A DNA stretch of 64,000 nt from Alteraurantiacibacter buctensis (GTDB lineage Bacteria > Pseudomonadota > Alphaproteobacteria > Sphingomonadales > Sphingomonadaceae): assembly GCF_009827655.1 (NCBI RefSeq), contig NZ_WTYV01000004.1, forward strand, positions 1 through 64,000, written 5' to 3'. Positions 4,109 through 37,863 of this stretch are shown here, piece by piece. Under the pieces are notes generated by a model. The model saw only the letters and a program-made list of their open reading frames with translations, searched no databases and had not been told where the DNA came from. Within the stretch, counting starts at the first letter, position 1. Every line of letters starts with the position of its first letter. Both the position numbers and the translations under genes were made by a program.

Positions 4109-4123
4109 GTTCTTGAAATGTTC
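4109..4123 (-). promoter_or_regulatory. SOS/LexA box upstream of the integrase
   Basis: GTTC-N7-GTTC with an 11-base period, the known operator type of alphaproteobacterial LexA, 43 bases before the integrase start. The same spacing occurs at five other ICE promoters. Confidence 0.65.
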
Positions 4124-4143
4124 GCCAGTATCCACTACAAAAA

Positions 4144-4158
4144 GCTACCTAAGGTAGC
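4144..4158. repeat. Palindrome GCTACCT-A-AGGTAGC at the integrase start
   Basis: A perfect inverted repeat with a one-base centre lies eight bases before the integrase ATG, where it would overlap the ribosome site. The arm AGCTACCTA recurs twice at the other end of the element (60908-60929), suggesting integrase or directionality-factor arm sites or an autoregulatory operator. Confidence 0.5.
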
Positions 4159-4166
4159 AGGTACAT

Positions 4167-5438
4167 ATGGCGAACAAAGTAGGTTTGACGGACGCTAAAA
4201 TCGCAGGGCTGAAGGCGCCGGCTGCGGGTCAGATTGAGCTCGCCGATGGTATCGTCCCCGGACTTAGGCTCCGCATGGGTGCCAGCGGTATCAAGACGTA
4301 CATTCTGCGCAAGAGGGTTCAGGGCAAGTGGTTGAATGTGACGATCGGACGCCATGGTCCGAGTTTCACCCTGGCCCACGCCCGCAAGAAGGCGCGCGAT
4401 CTGCTTGTCGATGTCGAGCAGGGCAAGAGCATCGCCAGAAAAGCGGGCGCAAAAAGAAAGGGATCAAAAGGCGTCGGGACAGTCGCGGAGCTCTACGAGA
4501 CGTACCTTGCTCAGCAGATCGAGGGCAAAAAACGGAGCGCGAGGGAGTTCGATCGGGTCTTCCGAAAGTACATTGAACCGGAGATTGGAGACCGGCTCGC
4601 GGACTCCATTACCCGAAGTGATGTGAGCCGCTTCGTTGAGAAGATTGCGTTCGAGCGGGGCAAGGAAACCCTGACGATGGCGCGCATCGTGTATCGCCAT
4701 CTTTCGACCTTCTACACGTGGGCGCTCACCAGACTTGAGCATATGCCAGCCAACCCCTGCCGGGATGCGTGGCGCCCGAAGCGGAATGAACCTCGAGATC
4801 GTGTACTGAGCGACCGCGAGCTAGCGGCACTATGGCAGTCTGCTGTCGAGGATGGCTATCCATTCGGTCATCTTGTGCAGATGCTTGTCCTTACGGCTCA
4901 GCGCCGGGGCGAGGTGCTCGATGCCGCGTGCGACGAGTTCGATTTCAAGGCGAAAGTCTGGACAGTTCCGGGTGACCGAGCGAAAAACGGCAAGGCGAAT
5001 GTGGTGCCGCTATCCGCGCAGGCCCTGGCAGTCATCACCGAGATATTCATGGCGGCTGGCATCGACCCCGACGAGGCCCACAAGCAATCCCAGATCCTGT
5101 TGGCATCGAAGGTCACCAATACGAACAGCGTCAGCGGACTATCGAAGGCCTGGAAGCGGATTAGAGCAAGCGTGGACGAGAAGCTCGGCTATGAGGCCGG
5201 TCACTTCACAATGCATGATATTCGACGGACGGTGGCAACCGGTCTCCAGCGTCTTGGTATACCCTTGGTGGTTTCTGAGGCGGTCCTCAATCACCAGTCA
5301 GGATCAGCTATGGCTGGCGTCGCTGGGGTCTATCACCGTCACCAGTATACCAACGAGAAACGCGAGGCGTTGGCGTTGTGGGGTAAGGAGGTAATGCAGA
5401 TCGCAGCCAAGTACCCAGCCGAGGCCAAAGACGGCTAA
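4167..5438 (+). CDS. int: P4-type tyrosine integrase of the ICE
   Basis: 423 residues, normal length for P4-type integrases that recombine at tRNA 3' ends. The N-terminal 90 residues are the DUF4102-type arm-binding domain, followed by a SAM-like core-binding domain (about 105-195) and the catalytic domain. The visible catalytic set is R246 or R247 (TAQRRGEV), H350 and R353 (MHDIRRT), H376 (LNHQSG) and the probable nucleophile Y389 (VYHRHQY). The gene lies 130 bases inside the left repeat and points inward, as usual for this class. An SOS box and a palindrome precede it, so excision is probably induced by DNA damage. It should cut the 46-bp core repeats. The AlpA-like protein at 38420 is the likeliest directionality partner (inference). 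Confidence 0.93.
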   Translation: MANKVGLTDAKIAGLKAPAAGQIELADGIVPGLRLRMGASGIKTYILRKRVQGKWLNVTIGRHGPSFTLAHARKKARDLLVDVEQGKSIARKAGAKRKGSKGVGTVAELYETYLAQQIEGKKRSAREFDRVFRKYIEPEIGDRLADSITRSDVSRFVEKIAFERGKETLTMARIVYRHLSTFYTWALTRLEHMPANPCRDAWRPKRNEPRDRVLSDRELAALWQSAVEDGYPFGHLVQMLVLTAQRRGEVLDAACDEFDFKAKVWTVPGDRAKNGKANVVPLSAQALAVITEIFMAAGIDPDEAHKQSQILLASKVTNTNSVSGLSKAWKRIRASVDEKLGYEAGHFTMHDIRRTVATGLQRLGIPLVVSEAVLNHQSGSAMAGVAGVYHRHQYTNEKREALALWGKEVMQIAAKYPAEAKDG

Positions 5439-5525
5439 TCTCAAAGGGGATCTCACCCACTACAAAACCGCCCAGCCACAAACCGCAGGACGATGGACCC
5501 GGCTCCGGCCATTTCGAGCCGATCT

Positions 5526-6182
5526 CTAGAAGCGCCAATGGCGAAGGACGTCGCGGACATATCCGGGCGTCTCGCCATTGCGGGGAATGCCGCCTGCGCG
5601 TTCTACCGCCCCTGGACCGGCATTGTAGGCAGCCACCGCGAGGTGAACCACGCCGAACTTGTCGAGCATCTGCCGCAGATACCGTGCAGCGCCGAAGATG
5701 TTAGCCATAGGATCGAAGCGATTGAAGACCCCGAGTTCTTTTGCCGTTGCGGGCATCAGCTGCCCAAGCCCCGCAGCGCCCGCCGGACTGACGGCCAAAG
5801 GGTTGTAGCGTGATTCCGTCCAAACGAGTGCATCGAGCAGGCCGGCAGGCAGTGAATACTTAGCTTCCGCCGCATAGATGTGGGGCAGGTAGCTTGCTCG
5901 CCTGAAGCCGGATGGGCCAGGTTGGGCCTTTGGCTCGTATCTGTAGGGCAAGTTGACGCGGCCAGTTTGTGGCATAGTCATAGCAGGTGCCGGGCCGCTT
6001 TGGGCGGATCGCCAGAGCCCATGCTCAACCAGCTGGAAGCCGTTTGATTCTGCAGCAATCCGGATGCCGTCGGAGTGGCTGGCGGGGGCTTCGATCATGG
6101 CTGGCGTGGGCAAGTCCTGGGCTCTGGCGGGGATAGCAGAGGTGATCGCGATGCCTGCGATCAAGATAGCTTTCATTCTCAT
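5526..6182 (-). CDS. Conjugation-type lytic transglycosylase
   Basis: 218 residues from the ATG at 6182 (AAGGA seven bases upstream); the open frame extends further but the signal peptide [21 protein letters not shown] begins here. The mature part carries an SLT fold in its C-terminal 130 residues: the catalytic Glu in [11 protein letters not shown], then [13 protein letters not shown] and [12 protein letters not shown], the standard signature. It cuts peptidoglycan in the periplasm to make room for the type IV secretion channel. It is transcribed away from the primase, with an SOS box and a TAGGAAAATG site between the two starts. Confidence 0.88.
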
Positions 6183-6213
6183 TTCTCGATCCTTGTATAG
6201 CCGAATCGAGTTA

Positions 6214-6246
6214 GAACATATAAAGAACATATGGCGTAGGAAAATG
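6214..6246. promoter_or_regulatory. Divergent control region: SOS box plus TAGGAAAATG site
   Basis: GAAC at 6214 and 6225 (GAAC-N7-GAAC, AT-rich spacer) is followed nine bases later by TAGGAAAATG at 6237-6246. The latter is identical, inverted, to the site at 37854-37863. It lies between the transglycosylase and primase starts, so both genes could be controlled here. Confidence 0.6.
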
Positions 6247-6306
6247 GTTTGGCGCTGGTGCAGAGCGGAGGCTGCACGGGGCGGGCACCGCAACCGGAGT
6301 AGGACG

Positions 6307-7236: not shown

Positions 7237-7276
7237 TTGAGGCCTGCCAGCCGCAGGACCTCGTCAGGAGGTTCCC

Positions 7277-9502: not shown

Positions 9503-9539
9503 GCATGTCGCTGGGATCCTCGGCATGGGGGACCGCCCC

Positions 9540-12467: not shown

Positions 12468-12522
12468 CGTCCTGCTGTCCCCACGCGTCCGCACATGGCC
12501 GGTTGACGATAAGTTCTTTATT

Positions 12523-12537
12523 TGTTCTCATTAGCCC
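12523..12537 (-). promoter_or_regulatory. SOS/LexA box upstream of the 12538 gene
   Basis: GTTC-N7-GTTC with an all-A/T spacer, ending directly before the ATG at 12538 and ten bases after a TTGACG hexamer at 12513, so LexA binding would cover the promoter. Confidence 0.6.
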
Positions 12538-12777
12538 ATGCCCCGAATCTCCGACGATATCCTCCTCACCCATCTCGAAGTCGCGCTGGCCGTTGCGCCG
12601 GAGCACACGCTCGTCCGTCTCAATGCCGATGATCCACGCGCCCAGCGCAGCGCCAGGGTTGATCTGGCTCGTCATCTTGTCGAGCGCATGCGCGGTTTCA
12701 CCATCGAAGGCGACAGCCATGGCTGCCCAGGCGCGCAATCGTGCCTATTTCCGGGCGATCTGTCGCCGATCGGATGA
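12538..12777 (+). CDS. Small protein of unknown function under an SOS box
   Basis: 79 residues beginning MPRISDDILLTHLEVALAVA, amphipathic and helical, with no recognised domain. The residues after about 60 (GCPGAQSCLF) look unlike the rest, so the tail may be shortened or shifted. An overlapping minus-strand frame exists, but the plus-strand frame has the better amino-acid composition and directly follows an SOS box. It may be a small regulator of the conjugation genes (inference). Confidence 0.45.
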   Translation: MPRISDDILLTHLEVALAVAPEHTLVRLNADDPRAQRSARVDLARHLVERMRGFTIEGDSHGCPGAQSCLFPGDLSPIG

Positions 12778-13728: not shown

Positions 13729-13737
13729 ATGGCTCCC

Positions 13738-14379
13738 TTAGAGTGCTCGTCCGAACCAGAGAACCCGCCCGACGATATTGAGCGTCCGCTTCTCGAGACC
13801 GCGCCAGCTTGGATAGGCTGGGTTGTCGCTCAGAACCGACGCGCGCTTGCCCTGCGGTTCGAGGGCAATCCGCTTTACGCTCAGCATGTCGTCCATCCGC
13901 AGGACATAGATCCCGTCTCTCAGGCGCGCCTGGCCGTCCCCGAGATCGACCATGACTTCGTCGCCATCATGAAGGGTAGGCTCCATGGAGTCGCCATGCA
14001 CGGCGATGATCGACAGGCTCGATGCCTTGCTCGCTGTCAGCCGGCGCAGCCACTTTTCGTCGAAGCCGAATTGCGCGGATTTGGCTTCCATCTCAGCGAG
14101 AGCGCCGTGGCCGGCTGATGCCTCGACATTGAGCAAAGGCACATGGACCAGTTCGACGACTGGGCCTGAACGACGGGCAGGGGCACCGAGAATTTTCTCA
14201 TCGACCCCGAAGAATCGCGCAAGTACCGAGCGATCCTGCTCGTCCAGCTGCCTCGGGCTGCCGCGCCGAATGTACTGCTGGATGTAAGCGGCATTGCGCC
14301 CCAGCAGGCGCGAAACCGAGGAGTAATTCACTCCTCGTTGCTGGATCAGTTCGTCCAGGGCTCTCCGTGCGTCGTCCAT
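13738..14379 (-). CDS. S24-family self-cleaving repressor (LexA/CI-like)
   Basis: 213 residues from ATG 14379 (AGGA upstream); a GTG at 14403 is an alternative. Residues 1-65 are a helix-turn-helix domain (SSVSRLLGRNAAYIQQYIRR). A linker with an Ala-Gly pair (VEASAGHGA) is the likely cleavage site. The S24 peptidase has Ser131 in HGDSMEPTLHDGDEV and Lys169 in MLSVKRIAL. RecA-stimulated self-cleavage would inactivate it during DNA damage. It is transcribed away from the small HTH gene at 14486, with palindromic TAGGA-type operators and an SOS box in between. Matching sites occur before the tra operon, the primase and the 37924 regulator, so it probably holds the ICE quiet. Confidence 0.88.
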   Translation of the reverse strand: MDDARRALDELIQQRGVNYSSVSRLLGRNAAYIQQYIRRGSPRQLDEQDRSVLARFFGVDEKILGAPARRSGPVVELVHVPLLNVEASAGHGALAEMEAKSAQFGFDEKWLRRLTASKASSLSIIAVHGDSMEPTLHDGDEVMVDLGDGQARLRDGIYVLRMDDMLSVKRIALEPQGKRASVLSDNPAYPSWRGLEKRTLNIVGRVLWFGRAL

Positions 14380-14404: not shown

Positions 14405-14460
14405 TAGGAAAATCGATCCTAGACTCTAGGAAGCCTTCCTAGTAAGAACATAACAAGAAC
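14405..14460. promoter_or_regulatory. Repressor operators and SOS box in the divergent promoter
   Basis: Two TAGGA/TCCTA palindromes: TAGGA-N7-TCCTA at 14405-14421, and CTAGGAAGCCTTCCTAG at 14426-14442 (seven-base arms). Directly after is GAAC-N7-GAAC at 14446-14460. This is the only place where the TAGGA motif is palindromic, as expected of the strongest sites in an autoregulated repressor. Confidence 0.72.
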
Positions 14461-14485: not shown

Positions 14486-14674
14486 ATGGAGCTACTGGAG
14501 CAGATCGAGGCATATCTGGCGCGAACCCAGACGTCGCCAAGCACCTTCGGCAGGTTGGCAGTTGGGGACCCAAGGCTGGTGTCCGATCTGAAGTCGGGTC
14601 GGCGGCCTCGCCGGCGCACCGAAGAGCGCTTGCAGGGGTATCTAAACGCAATCGGCTCAGTTGATGAAGTCTGA
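14486..14674 (+). CDS. Small HTH-type regulator, Cro-like
   Basis: 62 residues (MELLEQIEAYLARTQTSPST) with a short helix-turn-helix-like core, GRLAVGDPRLVSDLKSGRRP, and Arg-rich contacts after it. GAGGGCG precedes the start. It is divergent from the S24 repressor across shared operators, which is the position of a Cro-type or activator gene. A Cro-like role is inferred from position only. Confidence 0.65.
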   Translation: MELLEQIEAYLARTQTSPSTFGRLAVGDPRLVSDLKSGRRPRRRTEERLQGYLNAIGSVDEV

Positions 14675-20143: not shown

Positions 20144-20146
20144 CGT

Positions 20147-21772: not shown

Positions 21773-21789
21773 CCGTTGCAGGTCACCAC
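21766..21789. terminator. Convergent hairpin between the 21554 gene and traG
   Basis: Perfect nine-base stem GTGGTGACC / GGTCACCAC with a GTTGCA loop. Both stop codons (TGA 21770 and the traG stop at 21783) lie in the stem. There is no strong U tract, so it may act as a bidirectional transcript end or RNA stabiliser. Confidence 0.6.
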
Positions 21790-24485: not shown

Positions 24486-24518
24486 GTCTGTTGTCCCGCC
24501 TCGCTGTGGTTGGCCCGG

Positions 24519-26808: not shown

Positions 26809-28516
26809 AGTAGTCCTCGATCTTCTGTTGGATGTCCTGGGTGGCCTGCAGCTCGTCAGGCAGGCGAGCGGCGTCGGTGAACTCGGCATAGACCTCGCTG
26901 AAATCCATTTTCGAGAGGTCGAGCCGGGCAAATTCGTCGATTGTGAAGCCCTGGCATTGCTCGGTCTTCGGCTTGCCCCAAGGCTTGTTCAGCTGCAGGC
27001 GCCCCTGTTCCTGCAGGATCCGCGAGAGCTTGGATTCAAAGCAGCAGTAGACCTTGCGCTTGGTCAGGCACACGCCAAGAAAGGAGGATGAGCAATAGGT
27101 GCCGACGTAGGCGCATAGACCTTGGGCATCCTTCTGATGCAGCAGCATCTCTTCGCGGCTGCAGCCCAGCGCTACGAGCAACTGGATGCCCGGAATAAGC
27201 GGGAAGCCCTTGCCCTTGCAGCAGTTGAGAATACCAAAGACCTTGGACGAGCAGCTTTCGCGCGTCCCTTTGAACAAGGTGAGATTGTCCGGATCGAATT
27301 CGCGGCGCGCCTGGTTCATCGCGTTCAAGGCGACGGCCGCGTCCTTGAACTCGTCGTTGGCCTCGCGCTGGATGGTCTCGCATGAGCCACCGATACAGTA
27401 GACATCGCCGTCGCAGATAAACTGGTTGGTGTTCGCAGGCTGGTCCGGAACCGGGCAATCATAGACCCGCTCCCAGGTGCGGCAGGGCTCGCCCGCGAGG
27501 CAGTCTTCGCGCACCAGCTTGCAGCCCGGAGTGGCTTCAAGCGTCTGGCAGTCCTGTGCCTCGATGAACTGTGCGCAGCTGTAACTGCGGCTCCACGCCC
27601 AACAAGGCTGCGTCACTGCAATGCCATCGATGATGCGGGTGACCGGATCGCTGTCTGTGCACGTCTCGGTGTCCTGCTGACATGAGGTGTCGGCGGCGAG
27701 GCCAGCACACTGGCTTTCATCGCGCTTGGTGGTGACGACGTTCTCGCCCGTCACCGTATAGGGCGTCGCGCCCTCGACCGGTGCGGTGCAACTGACGAGA
27801 TCGACCCTCAGATCGCCGGAGTTGCAGCCCCAGTAGATCCCGAAATAAGGATTGCACAGGTTGATCGGGTAGGACTGCGTGACCGTGCACTGCGGCGCGG
27901 GGTATCGGTTGCAGTTGTAGACCGAAGCCGGATCAACCCCGCTGCCGCCAACGCAATAGTAGCCGTAGACCTGACGCTGCTCGACACGCGCGGTCAACGT
28001 CATGGGGCAGGTCCGCGTTCCCTGTGTCGCCGTATAGCCGACATTGCAGGTCGCCATGTAGCGCGCCGTGGTTCCGCTGGCCGGCGGCAAGGGCACGCAG
28101 CGTCCCTGCGAGCCGCCGATGGCCATTCCGCTCGTATAGGCGAGCGGGTCATCGCTGATCACATTGCTGCGCGCGATCGTTGCATCTAGATCCTGCGGCG
28201 CAAACCGGGCACGCCGGTCCATCGAATCCCGCATGGCCTTGTAGCCGGTGTTGGTCGTCGTCTGGCTCGCCGCCTCGCGGCTCATCCGGTCCGGATCATC
28301 AAAATAGCCCGATTGGCTTGGCGTTCCGCCAAAATTGGGGATGCGGTTTGCATCGGGGTTGGTCGTTGCCGCGCTTTGTGCCGAGGCAGCCTTGTCCCGC
28401 CCAAAAGCCTTGCCGTCGGCTTTGGCGGCATCGGTTGTGGTCTGGGCGTGAAGCGGCCCGGTCAGGGTGACCAGGAGCGCACTCAAGCACGCGACAGATA
28501 GTGATTGCCGTTTCAT
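26789..28516 (-). CDS. traN: TraN, mating-pair stabilisation adhesin
   Basis: 575 residues with a signal peptide (LSALLVTLTGPLHA). More than 30 cysteines, with clustered repeats such as CAQFIEAQDCQTLEATPGC, are the mark of the outer-membrane TraN that contacts recipient-surface proteins. The C-terminal third has the conserved FGILNCCKGKGF and YCSSSFLGVCLTK segments. Its start overlaps the trbC stop (ATGA). Apparently intact. Confidence 0.9.
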   Translation of the reverse strand: MKRQSLSVACLSALLVTLTGPLHAQTTTDAAKADGKAFGRDKAASAQSAATTNPDANRIPNFGGTPSQSGYFDDPDRMSREAASQTTTNTGYKAMRDSMDRRARFAPQDLDATIARSNVISDDPLAYTSGMAIGGSQGRCVPLPPASGTTARYMATCNVGYTATQGTRTCPMTLTARVEQRQVYGYYCVGGSGVDPASVYNCNRYPAPQCTVTQSYPINLCNPYFGIYWGCNSGDLRVDLVSCTAPVEGATPYTVTGENVVTTKRDESQCAGLAADTSCQQDTETCTDSDPVTRIIDGIAVTQPCWAWSRSYSCAQFIEAQDCQTLEATPGCKLVREDCLAGEPCRTWERVYDCPVPDQPANTNQFICDGDVYCIGGSCETIQREANDEFKDAAVALNAMNQARREFDPDNLTLFKGTRESCSSKVFGILNCCKGKGFPLIPGIQLLVALGCSREEMLLHQKDAQGLCAYVGTYCSSSFLGVCLTKRKVYCCFESKLSRILQEQGRLQLNKPWGKPKTEQCQGFTIDEFARLDLSKMDFSEVYAEFTDAARLPDELQATQDIQQKIEDYYARARQ

Positions 28517-29277
28517 GGAACCTGCCTTTCAAGGTGGGCGAGGTGCTGGGCCGCAAGCAAAGCACCGGGGCCACCGCCGCGCGCGAAAGTCTCGAGCGCG
28601 TAAGAAGCGCTGACATTGCCGCTCATCCTGTCGTGCGGCGGGACCTGCGTTCGGCAATCGAACCCGTCGCACAGATCGAAGTCGCTGCTGGTGACCACGT
28701 AGGTGGGTACGGCCTCGATTTCGAAAGCACGGAAGAGCCGCGGGTCGATGCCGACGCCGTCCAGTTGCTCGCCGGGCTTTGCCACTTTGGCCACTGCGGC
28801 CGTGAGGGCCTTGGCGCTGTTGCCGGGCAGACCGCGCAAGGCGACGATACCGCCAGCTTTGGTAACGTCGTCGATCAGCGCGCGCAGCGCGGTCGGCGGC
28901 ATCGAAAGCGAAGCAAAAGCGATGAACCTTGGCGCTTCGCCCATGCCTTCGCTGGTCATGGTGCCGGCGTCGGCAACCATCCGGTCAAAGTCGAATGTGA
29001 TGGCAGGATCAGGCTTCGCACTTGCGGCGGCCTCACGGGCGTATCGGCGAGCATGCAGCTCCGCCTCGTCGGAGCTCGTCCTCGCCTCGCGCGCCAGAGC
29101 TTCGGCTCTGGCGCGGGCATTGGCGGACAGCGCGTCGGCATCGGAAGCGCCCGCATTGGCCCGAGCCCGGATAGCGGCAAGATCGAGGTCCGGTTCGGCC
29201 GTCTGTGCAAATGCTCCCACCAAAGCGGCAAGGCTCGAAAGCGAGGCAACTACAAGAAGATGAGGAAGCTTTTTCAT
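28513..29277 (-). CDS. trbC: TrbC, F-type pilus assembly protein
   Basis: 254 residues from ATG 29277, which overlaps the traU stop as ATGA. Signal peptide (LLVVASLSSLAALVGAFA), an Ala-rich helical stretch (residues 30-90), then the TrbC fold: RFIAFASLSMP, GGIVALRGLP and AVPTYVVTSSDFDLCDG, a thioredoxin-like shape. In F this family works with TraW at the outer membrane; TraW was not found in this operon, so TrbC may have lost its partner. Confidence 0.86.
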   Translation of the reverse strand: MKKLPHLLVVASLSSLAALVGAFAQTAEPDLDLAAIRARANAGASDADALSANARARAEALAREARTSSDEAELHARRYAREAAASAKPDPAITFDFDRMVADAGTMTSEGMGEAPRFIAFASLSMPPTALRALIDDVTKAGGIVALRGLPGNSAKALTAAVAKVAKPGEQLDGVGIDPRLFRAFEIEAVPTYVVTSSDFDLCDGFDCRTQVPPHDRMSGNVSASYALETFARGGGPGALLAAQHLAHLERQVP

Positions 29278-29900
29278 AGCGCGCAGCAATTCCGCTTGCG
29301 CCAGACCAGGTAGCCCATGTCCTCGCCAATGGCGGGATAGACCTGGCCTGCCGACATGAAGGTGGTGGAGGCACCAATGGGCGCGCAGGCGTAGCGGCCC
29401 TTGGTCTGCGGATTGGGATTAGTGGCCTGGAAGCGGTATTGCTGCTTGCGCATCACCGGCATCAGGTACTTGCCGCAAAGCCCTTTGCTGCCCATCGTCC
29501 CCCAGGCGACGAGCTCGCGGTGGAGCTTGTAGGAGAAGCGGGCGAGCGCGAGCCGCGACGCCTGGACATGGCCAATCGTTGCCGAGACATTGCCGTTGAG
29601 CGGATACATCGTGCCCTGGCAGCCCGCGCACCAGAACAGCTCGTCGGTCGGCAGCTTGGCCGTCGCTGCCACGCAGTCCGCTGCACAGGCCGCAAGTGCC
29701 AACGGATTGGCGAACAGCACCGCCTCGGGATTGATGATCGCGGTGAGCTCACTGTCCTGCCAAAGCGGATCGATCTCGGTGATGTAGAGGATGTCGATCG
29801 AGCCGGACTCGAGGCACAGGAAATCGGCGACGATCTCCATCCAGTAGATCAGCGGATAAGCATACCAATGGACACGCGCGAGCGCAATGTCCGCACCGGC
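29274..29900 (-). pseudogene. traU: TraU C-terminal part, N-terminus deleted
   Basis: About 208 TraU residues remain: VHWYAYPLIYWMEIVADF, the DPLWQD segment, NPEAVLFANPLALAAC, LFWCAGCQGTMYPLNG and the end YLVWRKRNCC. F-type TraU proteins are about 330 residues and begin with a signal peptide and a Cys-rich region, all absent here. Upstream of about 29895 the frame continues only as a Pro/Arg-rich shadow through the end of traC. No start codon or secretion signal serves the remainder, so pilus assembly should fail. The loss also removed traW, which normally lies just upstream. Confidence 0.75.
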
Positions 29901-29968
29901 TGGCTGACGGGCTGTTCGTCTTCGGACGGGTCGGTCCGGTCGAAGGGGGTGACGAGGTGGAGAGACAT
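29849..29968 (-). pseudogene. N-terminal stub of the gene after traC (TrbI position)
   Basis: ATG 29968 starts MSLHLVTPFDRTDPSEDEQP, which reads like the cytoplasmic N-terminus of a bitopic Tra protein; AAAGGA lies 11 bases upstream. After about 25 residues it runs into out-of-frame traU sequence and stops at 29849. In F-type operons trbI and traW come between traC and traU, so this is probably the first 20-25 codons of trbI or a similar gene, joined by deletion to mid-traU. Identity is inferred from position. Confidence 0.5.
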
Positions 29969-29997
29969 GAAGATAGGAATCCTTTGATGAAGGGGTG

Positions 29998-32541
29998 TCA
30001 GCGGTTGGCGAAGGCGATGCGCTCGATGGCATCGGCGAGCTGGTGGCCGCGGGCGATCTCGGCATCGATGGCGGCGAAGGTCTGGGGCGAACTCGAGAAG
30101 AGCGTTGCCGAATAGTCATCGAGCACGAGCCGCCCGATCGCCTCGGTTTCCGGCCCCTTGATGAACACCTCGGAATAGTCGCTCCCGGAGCGCTTGAGGC
30201 TGCGGATCAGCGTCTCGGTGCGATCATCCATGTCGAGGCGCTTGCTCGCCTTGAAGTCGGCGATAGTCTCCGGCTTCTGCTGCAGGATCAGCATCCAGTC
30301 GCTGTTTTCGAGCGCCGCTGTCGCCCCGTCGGACTTGTAGTAGTCGTTGAGCGACTGGGTTGCGGTCGCCAGCGCACCGCCATATTTGCGGCAGGTGCGG
30401 GCGTAGGTTTCGACGAATTCACCCATCGAGCCGCCCTTCAGCATCGACCAGGCTTCATCGATCAGCAGGAGCTTGCGCAGCGACCGCGGGCTTCGCGTCA
30501 TCGCCTGGCTGGTCATGAACATGATCGCGGAGAGCACCACGCTGCGCAGATCCTCACGGCTCGCGAGGTCCGACATCTCGAAGACGGTGAAGTCGGCATC
30601 GAGGTCGAGGCTTGCCTGGCCTTCGAAGAAGGCCCCGTAGGTCCCGCCCGCCATGTAAGGGGCAAGCGCAGTCGCAATGTCTGAGGCGGTGTCATGCCCA
30701 AGACTGGCCAGCGTCTCGCCAACTGTGGTGACCGTCGCAGCGGCACCATGTTCCGCCCAGACGAGATTGACCGCCCGGTCGATAAGCCCGCGCTCGGTAT
30801 CGGTCAGCTTCGCGCTGTGGCGAGCCATTTGCCCGACGATCGCCTTGATCATCCCGAAGCAGTCGAGACGGTAGTCTTCGTCCTCGGCCGCGCGGGTCCC
30901 ATCGATCATCGAAAACGGGTTGAGACAAAAGCCCGCTTTCATCGTGAACTCGACAAAGCGGCCGCCCTGCAGCTTGACCGAATGCTCGAAGCTGCGGCCG
31001 TCGTCGATCACGACCACCTGCGCGCCGGCGCCGCGCAGGGCCGCGCACATCTCCTGGAGCAGCACCGATTTGCCCGATCCCGACTTGCCGCAGATCGCGA
31101 CATTGTGGTTGCCCGCGTCGTTCTCGAACGGCGACCAGAAGAAGGGCTGGCCGCGCCGCCCGACGAACAGCAGGTGAGGATGGGCGCTTCCAAGATACTC
31201 ACCCTGCATCGGTGCGATATTCGCGGCAGTGGTCGACAGGACGGTCTTGAACCGCTTCAGCCGCTCCATGTCGGCCCCGAGCCCGTCGGCTAGCGTCAAC
31301 GGCATCGCCGCGAGAAGCCCTTGGAGCTGGAGATAGCGCTCGTCGGTGAGATCCCAGCCCGCCGCCTTGTAGATCGACTTGATCGCGCGTTCGTGGCGAT
31401 CGCCTTGCCCTGCCGGCGAATAGGTCGTCACGCCGTAGAACACCCGCACGAGGCGGCGGCCTTCTTGGAGCTCGGCCTGAACGTGTTGCCACTCGGCGGC
31501 CTGTTCCCCGATCCGGGGCAGGAACCGCGCGCTGCGGGTCCCGGCTAGGCTGGTCGTCCGCATGAACTTGAAGCCGGCCTTTGCCGATGCCGCTTCCTGG
31601 TCCGGATAGACGAGACAGAGCATGGTGGCGGCCGGGCAGGGGAAGCGCAGCTTGTCGGTGAAAAGGTCGCCGATCAGCCGCGCGCATTCCCACGGGGCCC
31701 AACGCGATGGCATGTTGCGCACGGCAAAATGCCGGACGTCGAAGGCATCGGGATAGACCGTCCCGATCTCGGGTACTCCGTCGTTGACCTTGCCGGTGGG
31801 ACGAAAGCGCTCGGTCACGAGCCGCATGCGGTCTTCGGCCACGACCAGTTCGATGTCGTGGCGGATCGCCTGGGAGGCGATTGGATCGTTCGGATTGTAA
31901 GGCACCGCATCGTCCTGCGGGGCGGTGGTTGGCGAGGTCAGATCATCGATGACAGCGATGAGCGCTTCCGGCCCGACTTCGACCACGCCGAGGTTGAGCG
32001 ACTTCAGCATCGCCATCAGGCCCTCGCGGGTCTGCTTGAGATCCTCGTTGCTGACCGACTTGGTCGTCGGCACGCCGACCGAGACGATGACCTGGTGATG
32101 CCGCGCGTGGAAGGGGGCGTCCGGCGAGCCGGATTCCCAAACGAGCGAATAGAGCCGCCGCGCCCGGTGTCGGGCAATCGCCTCGTAAACCCCGCCCTGC
32201 ATGTAGCGCGGCGCGAACCACGGGCCGACGATCCTGCTGATGCGCGGACTGGCAAGGTGGAGCACCTGAAGGCAGGCACCTGCTGGCAGGCCTTCCGAAA
32301 AGAATTGCCCGAGGATTTCCCCGGTGCGCTCGTCAGCGCCGATCAGCGGCGTGACCGAGAGGACAAAGCCCTTGGAGCGTGCGTTGAAGTACAGCCGGGT
32401 CGCTGGATCATAGACCCGGTAGGGCAGCCAGTCGGAAAGCATGTCGACCATGAGCTGCGGACGGGCCTTCTCGGCGTGCTCGGCATCCCCCAGCAGTCCG
32501 CTGAGCAACCGATCGACGACGGACTTGAGTTGCTCGGCCAT
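29998..32541 (-). CDS. traC: TraC, VirB4-type assembly ATPase
   Basis: 847 residues. Walker A ICGKSGSGKSVLL near 487, Walker B KLLLIDEAWSML near 697, then the conserved ATATQSLNDYYKS segment; the N-terminal half is the VirB4-type membrane-proximal domain (WLPYRVYDPATRLYFN). It energises pilus assembly and secretion at the inner membrane. A GTG just before the ATG and the traV stop give a GTGATG overlap, so translation is coupled. It appears complete, in contrast to the coupling protein at 7277. Confidence 0.92.
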   Translation of the reverse strand: MAEQLKSVVDRLLSGLLGDAEHAEKARPQLMVDMLSDWLPYRVYDPATRLYFNARSKGFVLSVTPLIGADERTGEILGQFFSEGLPAGACLQVLHLASPRISRIVGPWFAPRYMQGGVYEAIARHRARRLYSLVWESGSPDAPFHARHHQVIVSVGVPTTKSVSNEDLKQTREGLMAMLKSLNLGVVEVGPEALIAVIDDLTSPTTAPQDDAVPYNPNDPIASQAIRHDIELVVAEDRMRLVTERFRPTGKVNDGVPEIGTVYPDAFDVRHFAVRNMPSRWAPWECARLIGDLFTDKLRFPCPAATMLCLVYPDQEAASAKAGFKFMRTTSLAGTRSARFLPRIGEQAAEWQHVQAELQEGRRLVRVFYGVTTYSPAGQGDRHERAIKSIYKAAGWDLTDERYLQLQGLLAAMPLTLADGLGADMERLKRFKTVLSTTAANIAPMQGEYLGSAHPHLLFVGRRGQPFFWSPFENDAGNHNVAICGKSGSGKSVLLQEMCAALRGAGAQVVVIDDGRSFEHSVKLQGGRFVEFTMKAGFCLNPFSMIDGTRAAEDEDYRLDCFGMIKAIVGQMARHSAKLTDTERGLIDRAVNLVWAEHGAAATVTTVGETLASLGHDTASDIATALAPYMAGGTYGAFFEGQASLDLDADFTVFEMSDLASREDLRSVVLSAIMFMTSQAMTRSPRSLRKLLLIDEAWSMLKGGSMGEFVETYARTCRKYGGALATATQSLNDYYKSDGATAALENSDWMLILQQKPETIADFKASKRLDMDDRTETLIRSLKRSGSDYSEVFIKGPETEAIGRLVLDDYSATLFSSSPQTFAAIDAEIARGHQLADAIERIAFANR

Positions 32542-33350
32542 CACTTGGGCTCCTTGGGCTGCGAGGTGCTTTCGGTCGGCAGAGCGCCGTTCCGGATCGC
32601 TGGTCGGATTGCGGCCTTTGCGGCATCGATCGCCGCGGCGCTCGGGAACACCGGAGCGCTCTGCCCCGCCTCAGGCCGAGGGGCTCGATCACGCGGGGGA
32701 GGCGAGGTGTCGAACCCCTCGACCGCCGGTGCCTTGGCACCGGCAACGGCCTCGCGCGCCGTGGAGGGGAGGACCAGCGGCGAGGCATCCGAAGTTTCAG
32801 TGAGCAAATTGGGGGCTTCTGCGGCCAGGGGCTGGACGGCCCTGGTTTCGGCAGTGCCAGCAGACGAGAAGGGCGACAGGTCGTCAGAGGCGTCCGTGTG
32901 TCCGTCCGCGTCAGCTTGTGATGCGACTGCCTGAGCAGCTTTCAGTTGCCGACGCACCTGGCGCATCAGGGATCCGCCCTGATCCTCGCCCGCTTTGCGG
33001 CGCAGCTCGGCGGCCCAGCGCGGATTTTCGACAACCGTCCAGGCGACCGCTTCGTCGTGCAGTGTCCCAGCTTCATCGACATGGGCGGGGAAGACGACGC
33101 GCAAGGTGCGTTCCGCCGTGCGGGCAGTGTCGGCATCCACGACGCCAGCCCTCTGCCGCACGTCTGATTGCGTGAGCACTTCAGCTGACCGATTACCGGT
33201 CGCCTTGGCATCGATCACATGGGTCGGTGCGCAGCCGCCTTTCGGAGCGCGGCAGGTGAAATCGCCCTCCACATTGGTGCCGAACGTGGCGCAGCCACTG
33301 GCAAGCCCAGACAGGCAGGCGCAGGCAAGGAGACGTGTCGAAAACCGCAT
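32541..33350 (-). CDS. traV: TraV, core-complex lipoprotein
   Basis: 269 residues with a lipoprotein signal: lipobox LASGC at residues 16-20. The Cys pair region (FTCRAPKGGCAPTH) is typical of TraV, which links TraB and TraK in the outer-membrane core. The C-terminal half is a Pro/Ala-rich flexible region, longer than in F TraV (about 170 residues). It overlaps the traC start by one base. Confidence 0.88.
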   Translation of the reverse strand: MRFSTRLLACACLSGLASGCATFGTNVEGDFTCRAPKGGCAPTHVIDAKATGNRSAEVLTQSDVRQRAGVVDADTARTAERTLRVVFPAHVDEAGTLHDEAVAWTVVENPRWAAELRRKAGEDQGGSLMRQVRRQLKAAQAVASQADADGHTDASDDLSPFSSAGTAETRAVQPLAAEAPNLLTETSDASPLVLPSTAREAVAGAKAPAVEGFDTSPPPRDRAPRPEAGQSAPVFPSAAAIDAAKAAIRPAIRNGALPTESTSQPKEPK

Positions 33351-33354
33351 GGGA

Positions 33355-34257
33355 CTATCCTTTGGGAGCAGGGGTGGGGGCGGCGCGCAGGAACTCCCGG
33401 AGCACGGCGGCAGGCCGGAAGCCCTCGAGAACAGCGCCGTCGGCGGGGCGTACGATCACAGGCGTGCCGCCAAAGCCGTGTGCCCGGGCAAAGGCCTCGT
33501 TGGCATCGAGCCCGCTCGTGTCGCAGGGTTTGGGATTGGCGAGCGCCAGACCCGAATAGGCCATGTGCAGCGCCAGCTCAGGCCGCGGCGAGCACAGCAC
33601 CCGTTCGGCATCGCGCCGGCTGTCCGCCCCGAAAATCGAGATCGGCCGTTCTTCGACCCGTGCCCCGATCGCCTTCAGCTCTGCCTCGAGCTTCTTGCAG
33701 TAGCCGCAGTGGAAGTCCGAGAAGACAACGACGCGCGGACCATTGGCAGGCCCCCAGGTGATCGCGCCTTTGGCCGGAAGGTCGCCGAGCGGGACATGGC
33801 GCGGCGGGGTGTTTCGAGCAGACGCCGCAGTGGGGGGTGGATCGCCTTCTGCTTGCGTCTCGGGATTGCTGCGCCGCGCTGCCCCCGCCGCAAGCAGGTC
33901 CGGATTGAGGGCGAGCAACCGGGCAGCCGTCAGATCCTGACGGGCTTCCATGTCGTAGACCCGGCCGATCACCAGATACTTGGCGGACCGGTCGACGTAG
34001 AAGAGCGTCGATTTGGACGCGACTTCGCACAGACCGCCAAGGCCCTTGCAGTTGATCGCGTCGATCGGGGTCTTGGGCAGGCGCAGCTTGAGTGCTTCGC
34101 GCACCTTCGCGGTGTCTGGAGCAGCAGTAGGGGCTGCAAGGCTTGCCACACCCCATCCGGTCGCAGCCGACACGGCGATGATTGCCGCCAGCCCAGCTCC
34201 GGCGCGCAACCAGCGGCGCCGACGGTTGTCCTGCTTGAGGAGAGTATTTTCGATCAT
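33355..34257 (-). CDS. DsbC-family disulfide isomerase of the tra operon
   Basis: 300 residues: an N-terminal cytoplasmic stretch with an Arg cluster, one membrane anchor (LAAIIAVSAATGWGVASLA), a DsbC dimerisation-like region (SKSTLFYVDRSAKYLVIGRV) and a thioredoxin fold with SDFHCGYCKKLE near 183 and a cis-Pro segment FGGTPVIV. It would shuffle disulfides in TraN, TraU, TraH and TraV. Membrane anchoring replaces the usual cleaved signal. It overlaps the traB stop by four bases and is followed by traV after four bases. Confidence 0.88.
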   Translation of the reverse strand: MIENTLLKQDNRRRRWLRAGAGLAAIIAVSAATGWGVASLAAPTAAPDTAKVREALKLRLPKTPIDAINCKGLGGLCEVASKSTLFYVDRSAKYLVIGRVYDMEARQDLTAARLLALNPDLLAAGAARRSNPETQAEGDPPPTAASARNTPPRHVPLGDLPAKGAITWGPANGPRVVVFSDFHCGYCKKLEAELKAIGARVEERPISIFGADSRRDAERVLCSPRPELALHMAYSGLALANPKPCDTSGLDANEAFARAHGFGGTPVIVRPADGAVLEGFRPAAVLREFLRAAPTPAPKG

Positions 34258-35594
34258 TGGGAGTTCCTCACGTAGACGCCGTCGAGGAACACGATCTCGA
34301 CATCGATGCCGGTCGGCATCTCCACGACGGGTTGGTACTGTTCGGCGCGCTCGATCAGGTATTTGCTGACCGTGTCGGCGGCATCGGCGGCGCCCTGGCC
34401 GAGTCCGCCGCCCAGGATGTCGCTGCCTGAGAGCTTGGAGCGACTGCCGTCGGGGTTGGTCGTGGCGCCGGAGAACACGCTGTTGGCATTGGCCGAGAAG
34501 CCGCGCCCGAAGCCGCCGACGATCCCGGCCAGCAGCGCTTGGCTGACGAGGCTGCCTTCGCGGCTCACGACGCGGCCGCGGACCCCGGACTTGCCGGCGA
34601 AGCTGATGAAGCCTTTGACCTCACTCACCGCGACCCGGCCGCCGGGCTGATCGCAGGTCATGCGGGCGAGTTTCACATAGACCTTCTCGCTGCTGAGATC
34701 GCCGCGCGCCGCGCCGTTCACCACGCAGCCCTGGATCCGGGTGGTGAGAACCTTCCCGTTCTGAATGACCGACCGGGCTGGACCGGTGATCCTGAGGACC
34801 ACGGGCAGCGGATCGGTCTGGCTGACGACGCCTGCCGAGGCATCGACGCCGACAATCACCCGGGCCGAAGCGTAGGAATTTGGGGGCAGGTAATCCGGCG
34901 AATCTTCGACGACGACCGGGGGCGCGTCGGGGCGGCCCACTCTGAGACCGTTGGTGCCTGCCTTGTCGGAGCTGAAGCTCATCAGCTTCACCTCGCCCGG
35001 AGAAGGGATCATGCCGCCTTGCGGCTCGCCCGCTGTGGGCACACCGCCTGGCTGGGACGAACGGGCTCGCGCGTCATAGCCGCCCGCCTGTGGCCCATAG
35101 GCCGGTGGCGGTACAGCGGATGCCGTCGTTGCGGGCTGCGCGGCAAGCCGTGTCTTCAGCTCAGCGTTCTCTGCAGAAATGGCATCGATCGCGGCCTGTC
35201 CGTCGACCCGCATGGCCTGGTTTTCGGTCTTGAGAGCCGCCAGCTGCGCTTCAATCTCCGTCCGCGGGATGCTCCCATCCTTCAGTGCTTTCTGTTCGCG
35301 GGTGACGGCATCGAGCCGGTTGCCGTAGGTCGCGACGAATTCGCGCTGGGACAGATCGCGGTTGACGAGGCCTGCCGTGTCGATCGTCTGCGCCGCATTG
35401 GGATCGCCGGTCGTGGGCTTGTTCTCGCCGCCAAGAATGAACCAGCTTCCGCCAAGCAGTGCGAGTGCTCCCAGCGACCCCAGCAGCAGCTTCTGTCGGC
35501 GCGCAGTGCGGGCGTTGAGTCCGGAAAGTTCGGACGGCGCGGCGCTCTCGGCCTGCAGAGGGGCCGTGCTTGGCGTATTGGCTGCATCAGTCAT
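34254..35594 (-). CDS. traB: TraB, VirB10-like core scaffold
   Basis: 446 residues from ATG 35594. Cytoplasmic N-terminus, one membrane helix near 40-55 (GSLGALALLGGSWFILGG), a coiled-coil region (REQKALKDGS to ENAELKTRL), a Pro/Gly linker, and a VirB10-like C-terminal beta barrel (SYASARVIVGVDASAGV, GFGRGFSANANSVF). It spans both membranes and couples the ATPases to the outer pore with TraK and TraV. The start overlaps the traK end. Confidence 0.9.
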   Translation of the reverse strand: MTDAANTPSTAPLQAESAAPSELSGLNARTARRQKLLLGSLGALALLGGSWFILGGENKPTTGDPNAAQTIDTAGLVNRDLSQREFVATYGNRLDAVTREQKALKDGSIPRTEIEAQLAALKTENQAMRVDGQAAIDAISAENAELKTRLAAQPATTASAVPPPAYGPQAGGYDARARSSQPGGVPTAGEPQGGMIPSPGEVKLMSFSSDKAGTNGLRVGRPDAPPVVVEDSPDYLPPNSYASARVIVGVDASAGVVSQTDPLPVVLRITGPARSVIQNGKVLTTRIQGCVVNGAARGDLSSEKVYVKLARMTCDQPGGRVAVSEVKGFISFAGKSGVRGRVVSREGSLVSQALLAGIVGGFGRGFSANANSVFSGATTNPDGSRSKLSGSDILGGGLGQGAADAADTVSKYLIERAEQYQPVVEMPTGIDVEIVFLDGVYVRNSQ

Positions 35595-36345
35595 GACCGG
35601 TCTCTCCGCTTGCGCCGACAACAAAGGCCGTGGTGCTGGCCCCGGGTTCGAGCTTCGGTTCGGCGATCGAAAGCGCGAGCGTGTCGCGGGGTGCGAGATC
35701 GCGCTCGGCGAGCGTCACGGGTTTCGATCCGCGATTGTGGATGCGGACGACCTTCCCGGTGAGGCTGGCACCGCGATAATCGGCGATGAGCTGGATCTCG
35801 AGATCGCCGACCCGTGCAGGCATGGCCGCCCTTTGCCGGACCTCAAAGCCGTCGACAGTCCGGTCATTGGCCATCGCCTGGATGAGCCTGACGGCGCTTG
35901 TTTCGAGCGGCGTCTGGTTTTCCCAATCCGCGGCGCGGTTCTTCGCGATCGCCGGGTTGGTCACGAAGATCTGCGCCGCCGGGATCTGCTCGACCCGGCA
36001 CGCGATCTTGTACACAAAGCCCTTCTTGGTGGTGGCGAAGAAGCTGATGGACCGTGCCGCGTAAGTTTCCGGCACCGACACGTAAATGTCGCCGCGCACC
36101 GGCTCGTTGGTCACGGCAAAGTCGTTGTACGGCGTGCCGGTCGAGATCTTGGAGACGCTGGCGAACTGGTCGTCGACCAATGCGAAGCGGGTGAGTTCGC
36201 GCGCCGAAACGCTGCATTCGAGTCCAGCGCCATCTGCGGCCTGTTTGAATTGGTCGGCCGCATGGGCGGGGGTGGATGCTACGGCCAGCAGCGCTGCCGC
36301 GCTCAGAAGTGAGACCCGTGCCTGGGCCCCTGTTTGGTAAGCCAT
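35587..36345 (-). CDS. traK: TraK, VirB9-like core protein
   Basis: 252 residues with a signal peptide (LLSAAALLAVASTPAHA). Beta-rich secretin-like domain (SFFATTKKGFVYKIACRVEQ, AAQIFVTNPAI) as in F TraK. It forms the outer-membrane ring with TraV and the TraB C-terminus. A GTGATG sequence overlaps the traE stop, as at traC. Complete. Confidence 0.88.
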   Translation of the reverse strand: MAYQTGAQARVSLLSAAALLAVASTPAHAADQFKQAADGAGLECSVSARELTRFALVDDQFASVSKISTGTPYNDFAVTNEPVRGDIYVSVPETYAARSISFFATTKKGFVYKIACRVEQIPAAQIFVTNPAIAKNRAADWENQTPLETSAVRLIQAMANDRTVDGFEVRQRAAMPARVGDLEIQLIADYRGASLTGKVVRIHNRGSKPVTLAERDLAPRDTLALSIAEPKLEPGASTTAFVVGASGETGHD

Positions 36346-36917
36346 CACTGGGCCTCCTTCGATTTGTCCTGTGGGGGGAGCTGGGCGAAGCCAGCCAGCG
36401 CCAGGCGCAGGCCGCGATAAGTCCAGCTGAAGCGGAAGCGGCGCTCGTCACTCGCAATCACCTGCGCGCCGACAAACGTCTTGAGCGTGCCCGTAACATC
36501 CGAGGTGAGGCCCTTGGGATCGACAGTCATCGACCGGATCACGAAAGCCTGAGTGACGTCCGATCCCCGTTGCTCTTCGACTATCCGCACCAGCTCGGCC
36601 TTGAGGCGGCCATAGCTTGCTGGATCAGCAAGCTTCAGGATCTCGTTCATCCAGTAATCGAGACCCTCGGGGCTGCGATTGAGGAGAACAAGGGCCGCAT
36701 CGCGGGTGACGAGCTCGAGATAATCGGCATCGACCCCGGCACTGCTCACGGTGAGCGTTTTGGGGACGGTCGGCACCAGCACCACTTCGCGATCCCGGGT
36801 AGCGGCAAGGCTCCCGGCGATGACCAATGCGAGGCCAAGGCCGGCGCTGGTCAGCGCAAAGAGGTTTCGCTGGCGCAGCAGCGATTGCTGACGTTCATGG
36901 GATATGTCGGAAAACAT
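36345..36917 (-). CDS. traE: TraE, VirB5/VirB8-region pilus assembly protein
   Basis: 190 residues from ATG 36917 (MFSDISHERQQSLLRQRNLF). One N-terminal membrane helix (ALTSAGLGLALVIAGSLA) and a periplasmic domain with DREVVLVPTVPKTLTVS, typical of F TraE. Ten bases downstream of traL. Complete. Confidence 0.88.
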   Translation of the reverse strand: MFSDISHERQQSLLRQRNLFALTSAGLGLALVIAGSLAATRDREVVLVPTVPKTLTVSSAGVDADYLELVTRDAALVLLNRSPEGLDYWMNEILKLADPASYGRLKAELVRIVEEQRGSDVTQAFVIRSMTVDPKGLTSDVTGTLKTFVGAQVIASDERRFRFSWTYRGLRLALAGFAQLPPQDKSKEAQ

Positions 36918-36927
36918 GGGCTTCCCC

Positions 36928-37215
36928 TCAACCGGCAAGCAGTCGGCAGTGAGAAGGCGGCGTTGCCTTGAGACCCAGAAATCCTGCAGGCAGATACCAG
37001 TATGCTGCATGGGCTACCCAGGAGCTGGCGCGTCCTGCTTTTGCCTTTCGCAATGCGAACCAGGCGCCGAAGGCGACTATGATGCCGATAAAGATATGCT
37101 GGGTGAGGATCCCCCAGGTGAAGGGGGCCAGCATTCCCGCGAACTCGTCGATGGTCCAGAAGCCGATAAGCTCCGGGTCATCGAGACGCCGGGGAATGAT
37201 GTAAGGGTCTGCCAT
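36928..37215 (-). CDS. traL: TraL, VirB3-like membrane protein
   Basis: 95 residues: IIPRRLDDPELIGFWTIDE followed by two hydrophobic segments (APFTWGILTQHIFIGIIVAF), the compact TraL pattern. Inner-membrane partner of TraC in pilus assembly. It lies 27 bases after the pilin gene. Confidence 0.88.
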   Translation of the reverse strand: MADPYIIPRRLDDPELIGFWTIDEFAGMLAPFTWGILTQHIFIGIIVAFGAWFALRKAKAGRASSWVAHAAYWYLPAGFLGLKATPPSHCRLLAG

Positions 37216-37242
37216 GGCGACGCCGCCTTCCCGTCCGACCGT

Positions 37243-37572
37243 TCAGATGACCGCGGTCACGACCGAGGTGACGATCGGAACACCGGTGCCGACGCCGATG
37301 CCGACACCCACCGGAACGGCGACCTGGCCGAGCGAAAAGCGCCCGGACGCCAGACCGATCAGGCCGCCAGCGAGGCTGAGAACCGTGATGATCTTACCCC
37401 CGGAGCCTTCCAGAAAGTCGGTGAACTTGGTGAGGGCAGGAGTGAAGGTCGTGTCAGCGCCAGCATAGGCGGCGCTCGCCGCAAGCGCCGCGACGGCGAC
37501 CGGGATGGCAAAGTTGATGGCCTTGCCAAGACCATTGGCGCTGGCGCGCCGGGGAAGGGTGAGAGACTGCAT
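37243..37572 (-). CDS. TraA-type pilin
   Basis: 109 residues with a long leader ending AALAASAAYAGA, then a short acidic mature start (TTFTPALTKFTDFLEGSGGK) and two hydrophobic helices separated by SGRFSLG. This is the F-pilin layout: about 64-70 residues after leader cleavage. First gene of the tra operon, so its promoter at 37600-37680 drives all of it. The leader may need a peptidase other than the missing operon-encoded one. Confidence 0.88.
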   Translation of the reverse strand: MQSLTLPRRASANGLGKAINFAIPVAVAALAASAAYAGADTTFTPALTKFTDFLEGSGGKIITVLSLAGGLIGLASGRFSLGQVAVPVGVGIGVGTGVPIVTSVVTAVI

Positions 37573-37611
37573 GTGAAGCTCCGGTTGGAGGGGTGGTCAC
37601 AGCGTTCTTGC

Positions 37612-37659
37612 GTTCGCTGTGTGTTCCACATGCATCTAGGAAATGTTCGTAGGAAAGTG
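37612..37659. promoter_or_regulatory. tra operon control region: SOS box and two TAGGAAA sites
   Basis: GTTC at 37612 and 37623 (11-base period, SOS box on the minus strand), TAGGAAATG at 37637-37645 and TAGGAAAGTG at 37650-37659, 13 bases apart. They lie 40-87 bases before the pilin start, where the tra promoter must be. Confidence 0.62.
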
Positions 37660-37834
37660 TCGAGCGGGAATCCCGCCTGGAGGTGGAAGAATGCGGACGC
37701 ATCTTTTGCAGTCCGACGCCCCAAACCAGCGATAACGACGCTAAACCAGTTATTTTATGTCGGTAAAAACCGCCGCAATTGACGGGATTTGGCGACGACT
37801 CGGGTAGAGGACCTGAGTCGCCTCTAAACGAGAT

Positions 37835-37863
37835 GTTCCGTGTATGTTCTTTTCATTTTCCTA
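37835..37863. promoter_or_regulatory. SOS box and TAGGAAAATG site before the 37924 regulator
   Basis: GTTC at 37835 and 37846 (N7 spacer), then CATTTTCCTA at 37854-37863, the exact inverse of the site at 6237-6246. It sits 61 bases before the HTH gene start. Confidence 0.6.

What the first reader, a model, noticed from the sequence alone, without database searches (positions are those of the whole stretch)
4109..37849. Six SOS (LexA) boxes sit at backbone promoters of the ICE
GAAC-N7-GAAC (or inverse GTTC-N7-GTTC), always with an 11-base period, occurs at 4109-4123 (integrase), 6214-6228 (transglycosylase/primase), 12523-12537 (12538 gene), 14446-14460 (repressor divergon), 37612-37626 (tra operon) and 37835-37849 (HTH regulator). 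This is the established LexA operator type of alphaproteobacteria. All six lie in short intergenic regions upstream of backbone genes, and I noticed none in the restriction or stress cargo. The element would be switched on by DNA damage through host LexA at integration, priming and transfer steps together, in addition to its own self-cleaving repressor.
Basis: partly seen in the sequence, partly recalled or inferred. Interest (0 to 1): 0.85.

Follow-up and report, generated by a model that had tools for sequence, protein, structure and literature searches.

The report
DNA-damage switches on mobile-element promoters
A self-transmissible DNA element carries six copies of its bacterial host's DNA-damage control site in front of its own integration, priming, regulation and transfer genes, and related loci carry them at matching positions, so DNA damage probably tells the element when to move.

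Summary
In 7.4 kb of intergenic DNA six were found, 0.22 expected (0 of 2000 shuffles reached six). By sequence it is the host's LexA operator: it precedes lexA in 30 of 30 genomes examined, and recA, uvrA, uvrD/pcrA, radA and rmuC here. Position is conserved: repressor divergon 30 of 30 loci, primase/transglycosylase 30 of 30, integrase 10 of 11 at 59% identity or more (window's own locus counted in each), pilin/HTH gap 61 of 62. Eight sphingomonad plasmids with homologous transfer operons lack it there (0 of 8). Beside four of six boxes lies a second motif, TAGGAA/TTCCTA, clustered at the element's S24 repressor gene; I infer it is that repressor's operator. Best explanation: a double lock, host LexA plus element repressor, both opened by RecA after DNA damage. 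Binding and induction are inferred, not shown. Direct LexA control of an integrative element is known (SGI1); this wiring looks like a new variant.

The parts
4109..4123 (+). LexA-type box GTTCTTGAAATGTTC, centre 51 bp before the integrase ATG
   Evidence: 10 of 11 integrase loci of 59% identity or more, own included, have it at -51/-52
6214..6228 (-). LexA-type box GTTCTTTATATGTTC between divergent transglycosylase (SLT) and Toprim primase genes
   Evidence: 30 of 30 primase loci, own included
12513..12527 (+).
   Evidence: 17 of 17 loci (9 genomes) in which the 12538 gene was found
14446..14460 (-). LexA-type box GTTCTTGTTATGTTC in the repressor divergon
   Evidence: 30 of 30 repressor loci, own included
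37612..37626 (+). LexA-type box GTTCGCTGTGTGTTC, centre 47 bp before the pilin gene that opens the tra operon
37835..37849 (+). LexA-type box GTTCCGTGTATGTTC, centre 82 bp before the HTH/AlpA regulator genes
14417..14431 (.). TCCTAGACTCTAGGA, 7+1+7 palindrome, candidate operator of the element's S24 repressor
   Evidence: read directly; TCCTAGAC core seen in many of the 20 divergons printed (function inferred)
14405..14441 (.). cluster of three TAGGAA/TTCCTA motifs (14405, 14427, 14436) next to the repressor gene
6237..6242 (+). TAGGAA motif 8 bp from the primase box
37637..37655 (+). two TAGGAA motifs (37637, 37650) beside the tra box
37858..37863 (+). TTCCTA motif 8 bp from the HTH box
4167..5438 (+). 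tyrosine integrase
   Evidence: Pfam PF00589, PF13356
5526..6179 (-). lytic transglycosylase (SLT)
   Evidence: Pfam PF01464
6310..7236 (+). CHC2/Toprim primase-like protein
   Evidence: Pfam PF13362, PF01807, DUF7146
12538..12777 (+). 79-aa protein of unknown family behind the relaxase gene
   Evidence: no Pfam or PHROG hit; conserved with its box
13738..14379 (-). S24 (LexA/CI-like) repressor
   Evidence: Pfam PF00717, PHROG CI-like repressor, Ser/Lys dyad and Ala-Gly hinge
14486..14674 (+). 62-aa protein divergent from the repressor (Cro-like role inferred from position)
   Evidence: 54% identical copy in the second element; no family hit
21783..37572 (-). F-type T4SS (tra) operon from pilin to TraG
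   Evidence: Pfam TraG_N, TraC_F_IV, TraL; pilin TrbC/VirB2 just under its cut-off, 27.2 against 27.9 bits
37924..38671 (+). HTH regulator (37924-38385) and AlpA/excisionase-like regulator (38192-38671)
   Evidence: HTH_31 just under its cut-off, 25.7 against 27 bits; Phage_AlpA 68.8 bits; PHROG excisionase and transcriptional regulator
3991..4035 (.). left 45-bp direct repeat (reads as a tRNA-Lys 3' end), element boundary
   Evidence: identical copy at 60995-61039; tRNA identity by eye, ARAGORN called none
60995..61039 (.). right 45-bp direct repeat, element boundary

Best explanation
The six boxes are operators of the host LexA repressor. In the quiet state LexA holds down the integrase, transglycosylase/primase, 12538, repressor-divergon, tra-operon and HTH/AlpA (excisionase-like) promoters; at four of them a second operator (TAGGAA/TTCCTA), probably bound by the element's own S24 repressor, adds a second lock. 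DNA damage makes RecA filaments that trigger self-cleavage of LexA (established for LexA) and, by inference, of the S24 repressor, so excision, priming and pilus building are released together. Shown here: site presence, non-chance placement, identity with the host SOS operator, positional conservation over related loci, absence at the homologous operon of eight plasmids. Inferred: binding, repression, cleavage of the S24 protein, joint induction.
For: Enrichment in intergenic DNA, 0 of 2000 shuffles. Same motif at host lexA, recA, uvrA, uvrD/pcrA, radA, rmuC, mmcB and a radical-SAM/UDG-linked repair gene and at lexA in 30 of 30 genomes (best 30 of 115 with a match, own included). A matrix trained on 11 host boxes ranks five of the six element boxes first to fifth in the window and the sixth seventh. 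A second element of the same genome (TraG 69%, TraC 70% identical) has boxes at near-equal offsets. Related loci, own included: 30 of 30 repressor loci, 30 of 30 primase loci, 10 of 11 integrases of 59% identity or more; 61 of 62 pilin/HTH gaps (42 of 43 dereplicated), with only 11 further hits in 1.288 Mb of the rest of those 62 loci. Half-sites invariant while N7 varies. 0 of 8 plasmids with homologous tra operons. S24 repressor keeps GDSM, VKR and an Ala-Gly hinge.
Against: No binding or expression data. 37612 scores lower (15.1) in the matrix scan than one coding stretch of the cargo (16497, 15.5), and two of the 50 matches filed as coding score 16.8 and 22.4, within the element range, though at least the latter is probably misfiled. 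The N7 of the pilin box is nearly invariant, so another factor or the promoter may shape it. 1 of 62 gaps (L133) lacks an exact site, 16 of 62 have only one or none, and the truncated integrase locus L282 has none before the integrase. Only 1 of 19 more distant integrases has a box within 400 bp upstream. 50 of the 100 listed genome matches fall in coding sequence, so the bare motif is weak evidence. No relative was tallied for all six sites in one element.
Confidence: 0.88

Rival explanations
1. The boxes are operators of the element's own S24 repressor (or of its HTH regulator) that happens to share LexA's specificity; host LexA is irrelevant.
For: All six sites are on the element, and boxes travel with the S24 repressor gene. 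I did not look for that repressor on the plasmids that lack the boxes.
Against: The same motif precedes lexA in 30 of 30 genomes and host repair genes; none of the 11 host repair boxes has TAGGAA/TTCCTA within 40 bp. A whole-genome search with the LexA DNA-binding domain family found only lexA, not the S24 repressors. A separate palindromic motif lies at the repressor gene.
Confidence: 0.07
2. The motif marks conserved promoter elements (-10/-35 regions) of the element rather than a repressor site.
For: N7 is AT-rich and partly conserved (TATATAT at primase, GCTGTGT or GCTGTAT at pilin), and boxes lie 18 to 110 bp before the nearest backbone start codon.
Against: The fully invariant letters include both GTTC half-sites while N7 varies; in L162, L163, L165, L166, L167 and L169 the pilin box is inverted and lies at -87 to -98 with a different N7; host SOS genes share the motif.
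Confidence: 0.03
3. Chance matches.
For: 1.51 expected in the window by whole-window shuffles; the coding match at 55363 may be one of these.
Against: 0 of 2000 intergenic shuffles and positional conservation.
Confidence: 0.01

Closest known systems
SXT/R391 ICEs (SetR repressor)
   Same: Integrative conjugative element with an S24 repressor that SOS inactivates (PMC4542580, passages seen).
   Different: In the passages seen the SOS signal acts through SetR and then SetCD; here the host LexA operator itself stands at six promoters, and the regulators beside the tra promoter are HTH and AlpA types.
SGI1 sgaDC promoter
   Same: Direct LexA repression of an integrative element's promoter, with gel shift and SOS-induction data (PMC9927553, passages seen).
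   Different: There six putative sites were listed in the backbone, two in promoter regions, and the activator promoter was the one validated; CTG-N10-CAG box. Here the six intergenic sites are all at backbone promoters, including integrase and tra operon.
Integron integrase LexA boxes
   Same: LexA control of a recombinase gene (PMC3108266, search listing and start of abstract only).
   Different: Cassette capture by an integron, not conjugative transfer.
CTX phage (LexA plus RstR)
   Same: Double control by host LexA and an element repressor (recalled; papers seen only in the listing).
   Different: Filamentous phage, not a conjugative element.

Membership tests
Alphaproteobacterial LexA operator | Direct repeat GTTC-N7-GTTC | tested here: met
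   motif in print in PMC8565304 (passage)
Alphaproteobacterial LexA operator | Same motif at host lexA and recA | tested here: met
   (lexA 30 of 30 examined)
Alphaproteobacterial LexA operator | Lies in promoter regions and is conserved there | tested here: met
Alphaproteobacterial LexA operator | Bound by LexA; genes induced by DNA damage | not testable with these tools
   needs gel shift and RNA-seq
Integrative and conjugative element | Integrase, relaxase, coupling protein and T4SS between direct repeats | tested here: met
   excision and transfer not tested
SXT/R391-like SOS-induced ICE | S24 repressor with Ser/Lys dyad and Ala-Gly hinge | tested here: met
   (sequence features only; cleavage not tested)
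SXT/R391-like SOS-induced ICE | SetCD (FlhDC-like) activators | tested here: inconclusive
   one search gives HTH and AlpA for the regulators by the tra promoter; not every gene of the element was scanned

The most novel reading that the evidence does not exclude
A family of integrative conjugative elements of Sphingomonadales is a plug-in module of the host SOS regulon: its backbone promoters read host LexA directly, most of them also read the element's own cleavable repressor, and the pair acts as a two-key lock that also keeps the transfer genes silent in a new recipient before the element's repressor has built up.
Probability: 0.45. Interest if true: 0.75.

Novelty: new variant of a known kind. 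Interest (0 to 1): 0.62.

Why it matters
In the two best-described cases that I saw, SOS reaches the element through its own repressor (SXT) or through one validated LexA-repressed activator promoter (SGI1). Here host LexA boxes stand at six backbone promoters of one element, and each of these promoters keeps its box in related loci, while eight plasmids with a homologous transfer operon lack it there. That suggests a testable link between integrated life style and host LexA control, and predicts that DNA-damaging conditions raise excision and transfer of such elements among sphingomonads.

Tried and rejected
Chance: rejected. Operator of the element repressor instead of LexA: judged unlikely. 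Solved-structure relatives of the S24 repressor by sequence: none at E 0.001. Pfam/PHROG families for the 62-aa divergent protein and the 79-aa 12538 protein: none. A paper on Sphingopyxis granuli TFA (PMC6472365, passages only) lists lexA, recA and radA as induced under anoxia; its main text holds no 'conjugal', 'type IV secretion' or 'integrase', so it neither supports nor refutes. Searches for print on LexA boxes in sphingomonad ICEs (open-licence library only; 15 of 43 hits shown and 10 of 26) showed no such report by title or start of abstract; most full texts were not read. A single-strand fold of the repressor operator array gives strong hairpins, as palindromic operators would anyway.

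Weak points of my counts. The related loci were the best-scoring 30 of each of four searches, or 80 of 323, so they lean to close relatives, and each set of 30 contains the window's own locus. I did not check that each related locus is an integrated element. 18 of the 80 TraC loci could not be judged for the pilin/HTH gap. Only 8 of 98 plasmid records were examined; one of these (L332) has another gene arrangement there. The 11 host boxes for the matrix were chosen by me by gene function. Of 20 genes next to host intergenic boxes that I scanned, 8 or 9 are repair or DNA-metabolism genes; the others include ffh, coproporphyrinogen oxidase, a GNAT, a patatin-like protein, a D12 methylase, an integrase and one without a family. 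Gene borders come from my own simple predictor, which probably misfiled at least one site (C15:799894) as coding. The Ala-Gly count is of the dipeptide anywhere in the protein; its place in the hinge was seen in the 8 element sequences printed.
Full report
What is there. An integrative and conjugative element lies between 45-bp identical repeats at 3991-4035 and 60995-61039, which read by eye as the 3' end of a tRNA-Lys gene (ARAGORN calls none in the window). Backbone: integrase 4167, transglycosylase 5526(-), Toprim primase 6310, TraD/TrwB-like 7277, TrwC relaxase 9525, S24 repressor 13738(-), F-type T4SS 21783-37572(-), HTH and AlpA-like regulators 37924-38671 (pilin and HTH hits lie just under their cut-offs). 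Cargo includes a D12 methylase/Eco57I/McrBC block at 15106-21451.

The boxes. Exact GTTC-N7-GTTC occurs seven times in the window against 1.51 expected. Six are intergenic: 4109, 6214, 12513 (not 12523), 14446, 37612 and 37835. The seventh, 55363, is coding cargo. In the 7,438 bp that I class as intergenic, six are seen and 0.22 expected; none of 2000 dinucleotide shuffles reaches six and the maximum is three; the 56,562 coding bp hold one. Other spacings give 0 to 5 in the window.

They are the host's LexA operators by sequence. The motif is in print as a LexA motif of Alphaproteobacteria (PMC8565304, passage). The genome has 101 exact matches against 50 for the reversed pattern. Of the 100 places listed, 50 are coding and 50 intergenic by my predictor. 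Genes next to intergenic ones include lexA (80 bp), recA, uvrA, uvrD/pcrA, radA, rmuC, mmcB, a ribonucleotide reductase and a radical-SAM/UDG-linked repair gene; others are ordinary genes. lexA has the box in 30 of 30 genomes whose locus was returned, out of 115 with a match. A matrix from 11 host boxes gives the element boxes 15.1-22.2, host boxes 11.4-21.2 when left out one at a time, and the 50 coding matches a mean of 9.6, with the highest at 22.4 (probably misfiled) and 16.8; in the window the element boxes rank 1, 2, 3, 4, 5 and 7, a coding stretch at 16497 being sixth.

They are conserved in position. A second element in the same genome (C16) has boxes before pilin (-48 against -47), HTH (-82 against -82) and repressor (-71 against -74). 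Over the sets of 30 loci (own locus included in each): repressor divergon 30 of 30, at -66 to -83; primase 30 of 30, at -82 to -109; integrase 10 of 11 of 59% identity or more, the miss being L282, a truncated integrase with other DNA upstream, and 1 of 19 more distant ones; behind the relaxase, 17 of 17 loci (9 genomes) where the 12538 gene was found, and 0 of 22 loci of the relaxase set without it. In the pilin/HTH gap 61 of 62 judgeable TraC loci have at least one box (42 of 43 dereplicated) and 46 of 62 have two or more; 11 further matches occur in the other 1.288 Mb of these loci; spacings N4 and N10 give 28 and 11 hits in the gap and the other spacings 0 to 2. In L162, L163, L165, L166, L167 and L169 the box on the pilin side is inverted and moved, with a different N7. 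In dereplicated repressor (17) and primase (20) sets the eight half-site columns are fully conserved (1.00) against 0.84 and 0.87 for N7 and 0.75 and 0.65 for 20-bp flanks.

They seem to go with integrated elements. 98 plasmid records encode a TraC relative. In the eight that I fetched none has the box before the tra operon; two matches in L332 lie inside traC and traN genes. I did not check each related locus of the other sets for integration.

A second motif. TAGGAA/TTCCTA occurs 10 times in the window, seven of them in the same promoter regions. Within 40 bp of a box it occurs at 4 of 6 element boxes, 0 of 50 coding boxes, and 6 of 44 other intergenic boxes, of which five are second-element or primase copies of this kind and in the sixth the letters are inside the box itself. 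The repressor gene has three next to it, and the perfect palindrome TCCTAGACTCTAGGA at 14417-14431; the core recurs in related divergons. I take it as the operator of the S24 repressor; this is inference. The integrase and 12538 promoters lack it.

Mechanism. The S24 repressor keeps the GDSM serine, VKR lysine and an Ala-Gly hinge (VKR and an AG dipeptide in 32 of 32 sequences, D.M in 30 of 32). LexA cleavage upon RecA activation is established; for SetR of SXT the same signal is described (PMC4542580). So DNA damage should open both locks at once, releasing integrase, the AlpA/excisionase-like regulator (PHROG 'excisionase and transcriptional regulator'), primase and tra operon. A possible further use is that host LexA restrains the transfer genes in a fresh recipient; this is speculation.

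What is known. Direct LexA control of an integrative element promoter was shown for SGI1 sgaDC (PMC9927553, passages), and LexA control is reported for integron integrases (PMC3108266, listing only). I found no report of this for sphingomonad ICEs in the open-licence library (listings, mostly not full texts). Hence a new variant of a known kind: the parts are known; the number of LexA-marked promoters on one element and their conservation over related loci are what looks new.

Noticed in passing
window 4144-4158: Perfect palindrome GCTACCTAAGGTAGC just before the integrase gene, kept in L282 where the LexA-type box is missing and in altered form in L281 and L293; possible autoregulatory or arm site.
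   Followed up: partly
G000:C17:75783-75803 (L061): A third, about 95% identical copy of the att repeat some 14.8 kb beyond the right end suggests a second island in tandem.
   Followed up: no
G000:C16:70080 and G000:C10:28085: Two further primase copies in the same genome keep the LexA-type box and the TAGGAA motif. The C16 copy is about 36 kb from the second element's T4SS and may belong to it; the surroundings of the C10 copy were not examined.
   Followed up: partly
window 37846-37860: The HTH box is followed by a third half-site-like TTTC in the same 11-bp phase (GTTC-N7-GTTC-N7-TTTC), seen in many relatives too.
   Followed up: partly
window 37612-37626 and relatives: The N7 of the pilin box is nearly invariant (GCTGTGT or GCTGTAT) although the motif leaves it free, which LexA binding alone does not explain.
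   Followed up: no
window 43033-45735: Cargo encodes a 900-aa protein with UvrA DNA-binding and ABC domains; no exact LexA-type box lies near it.
   Followed up: no
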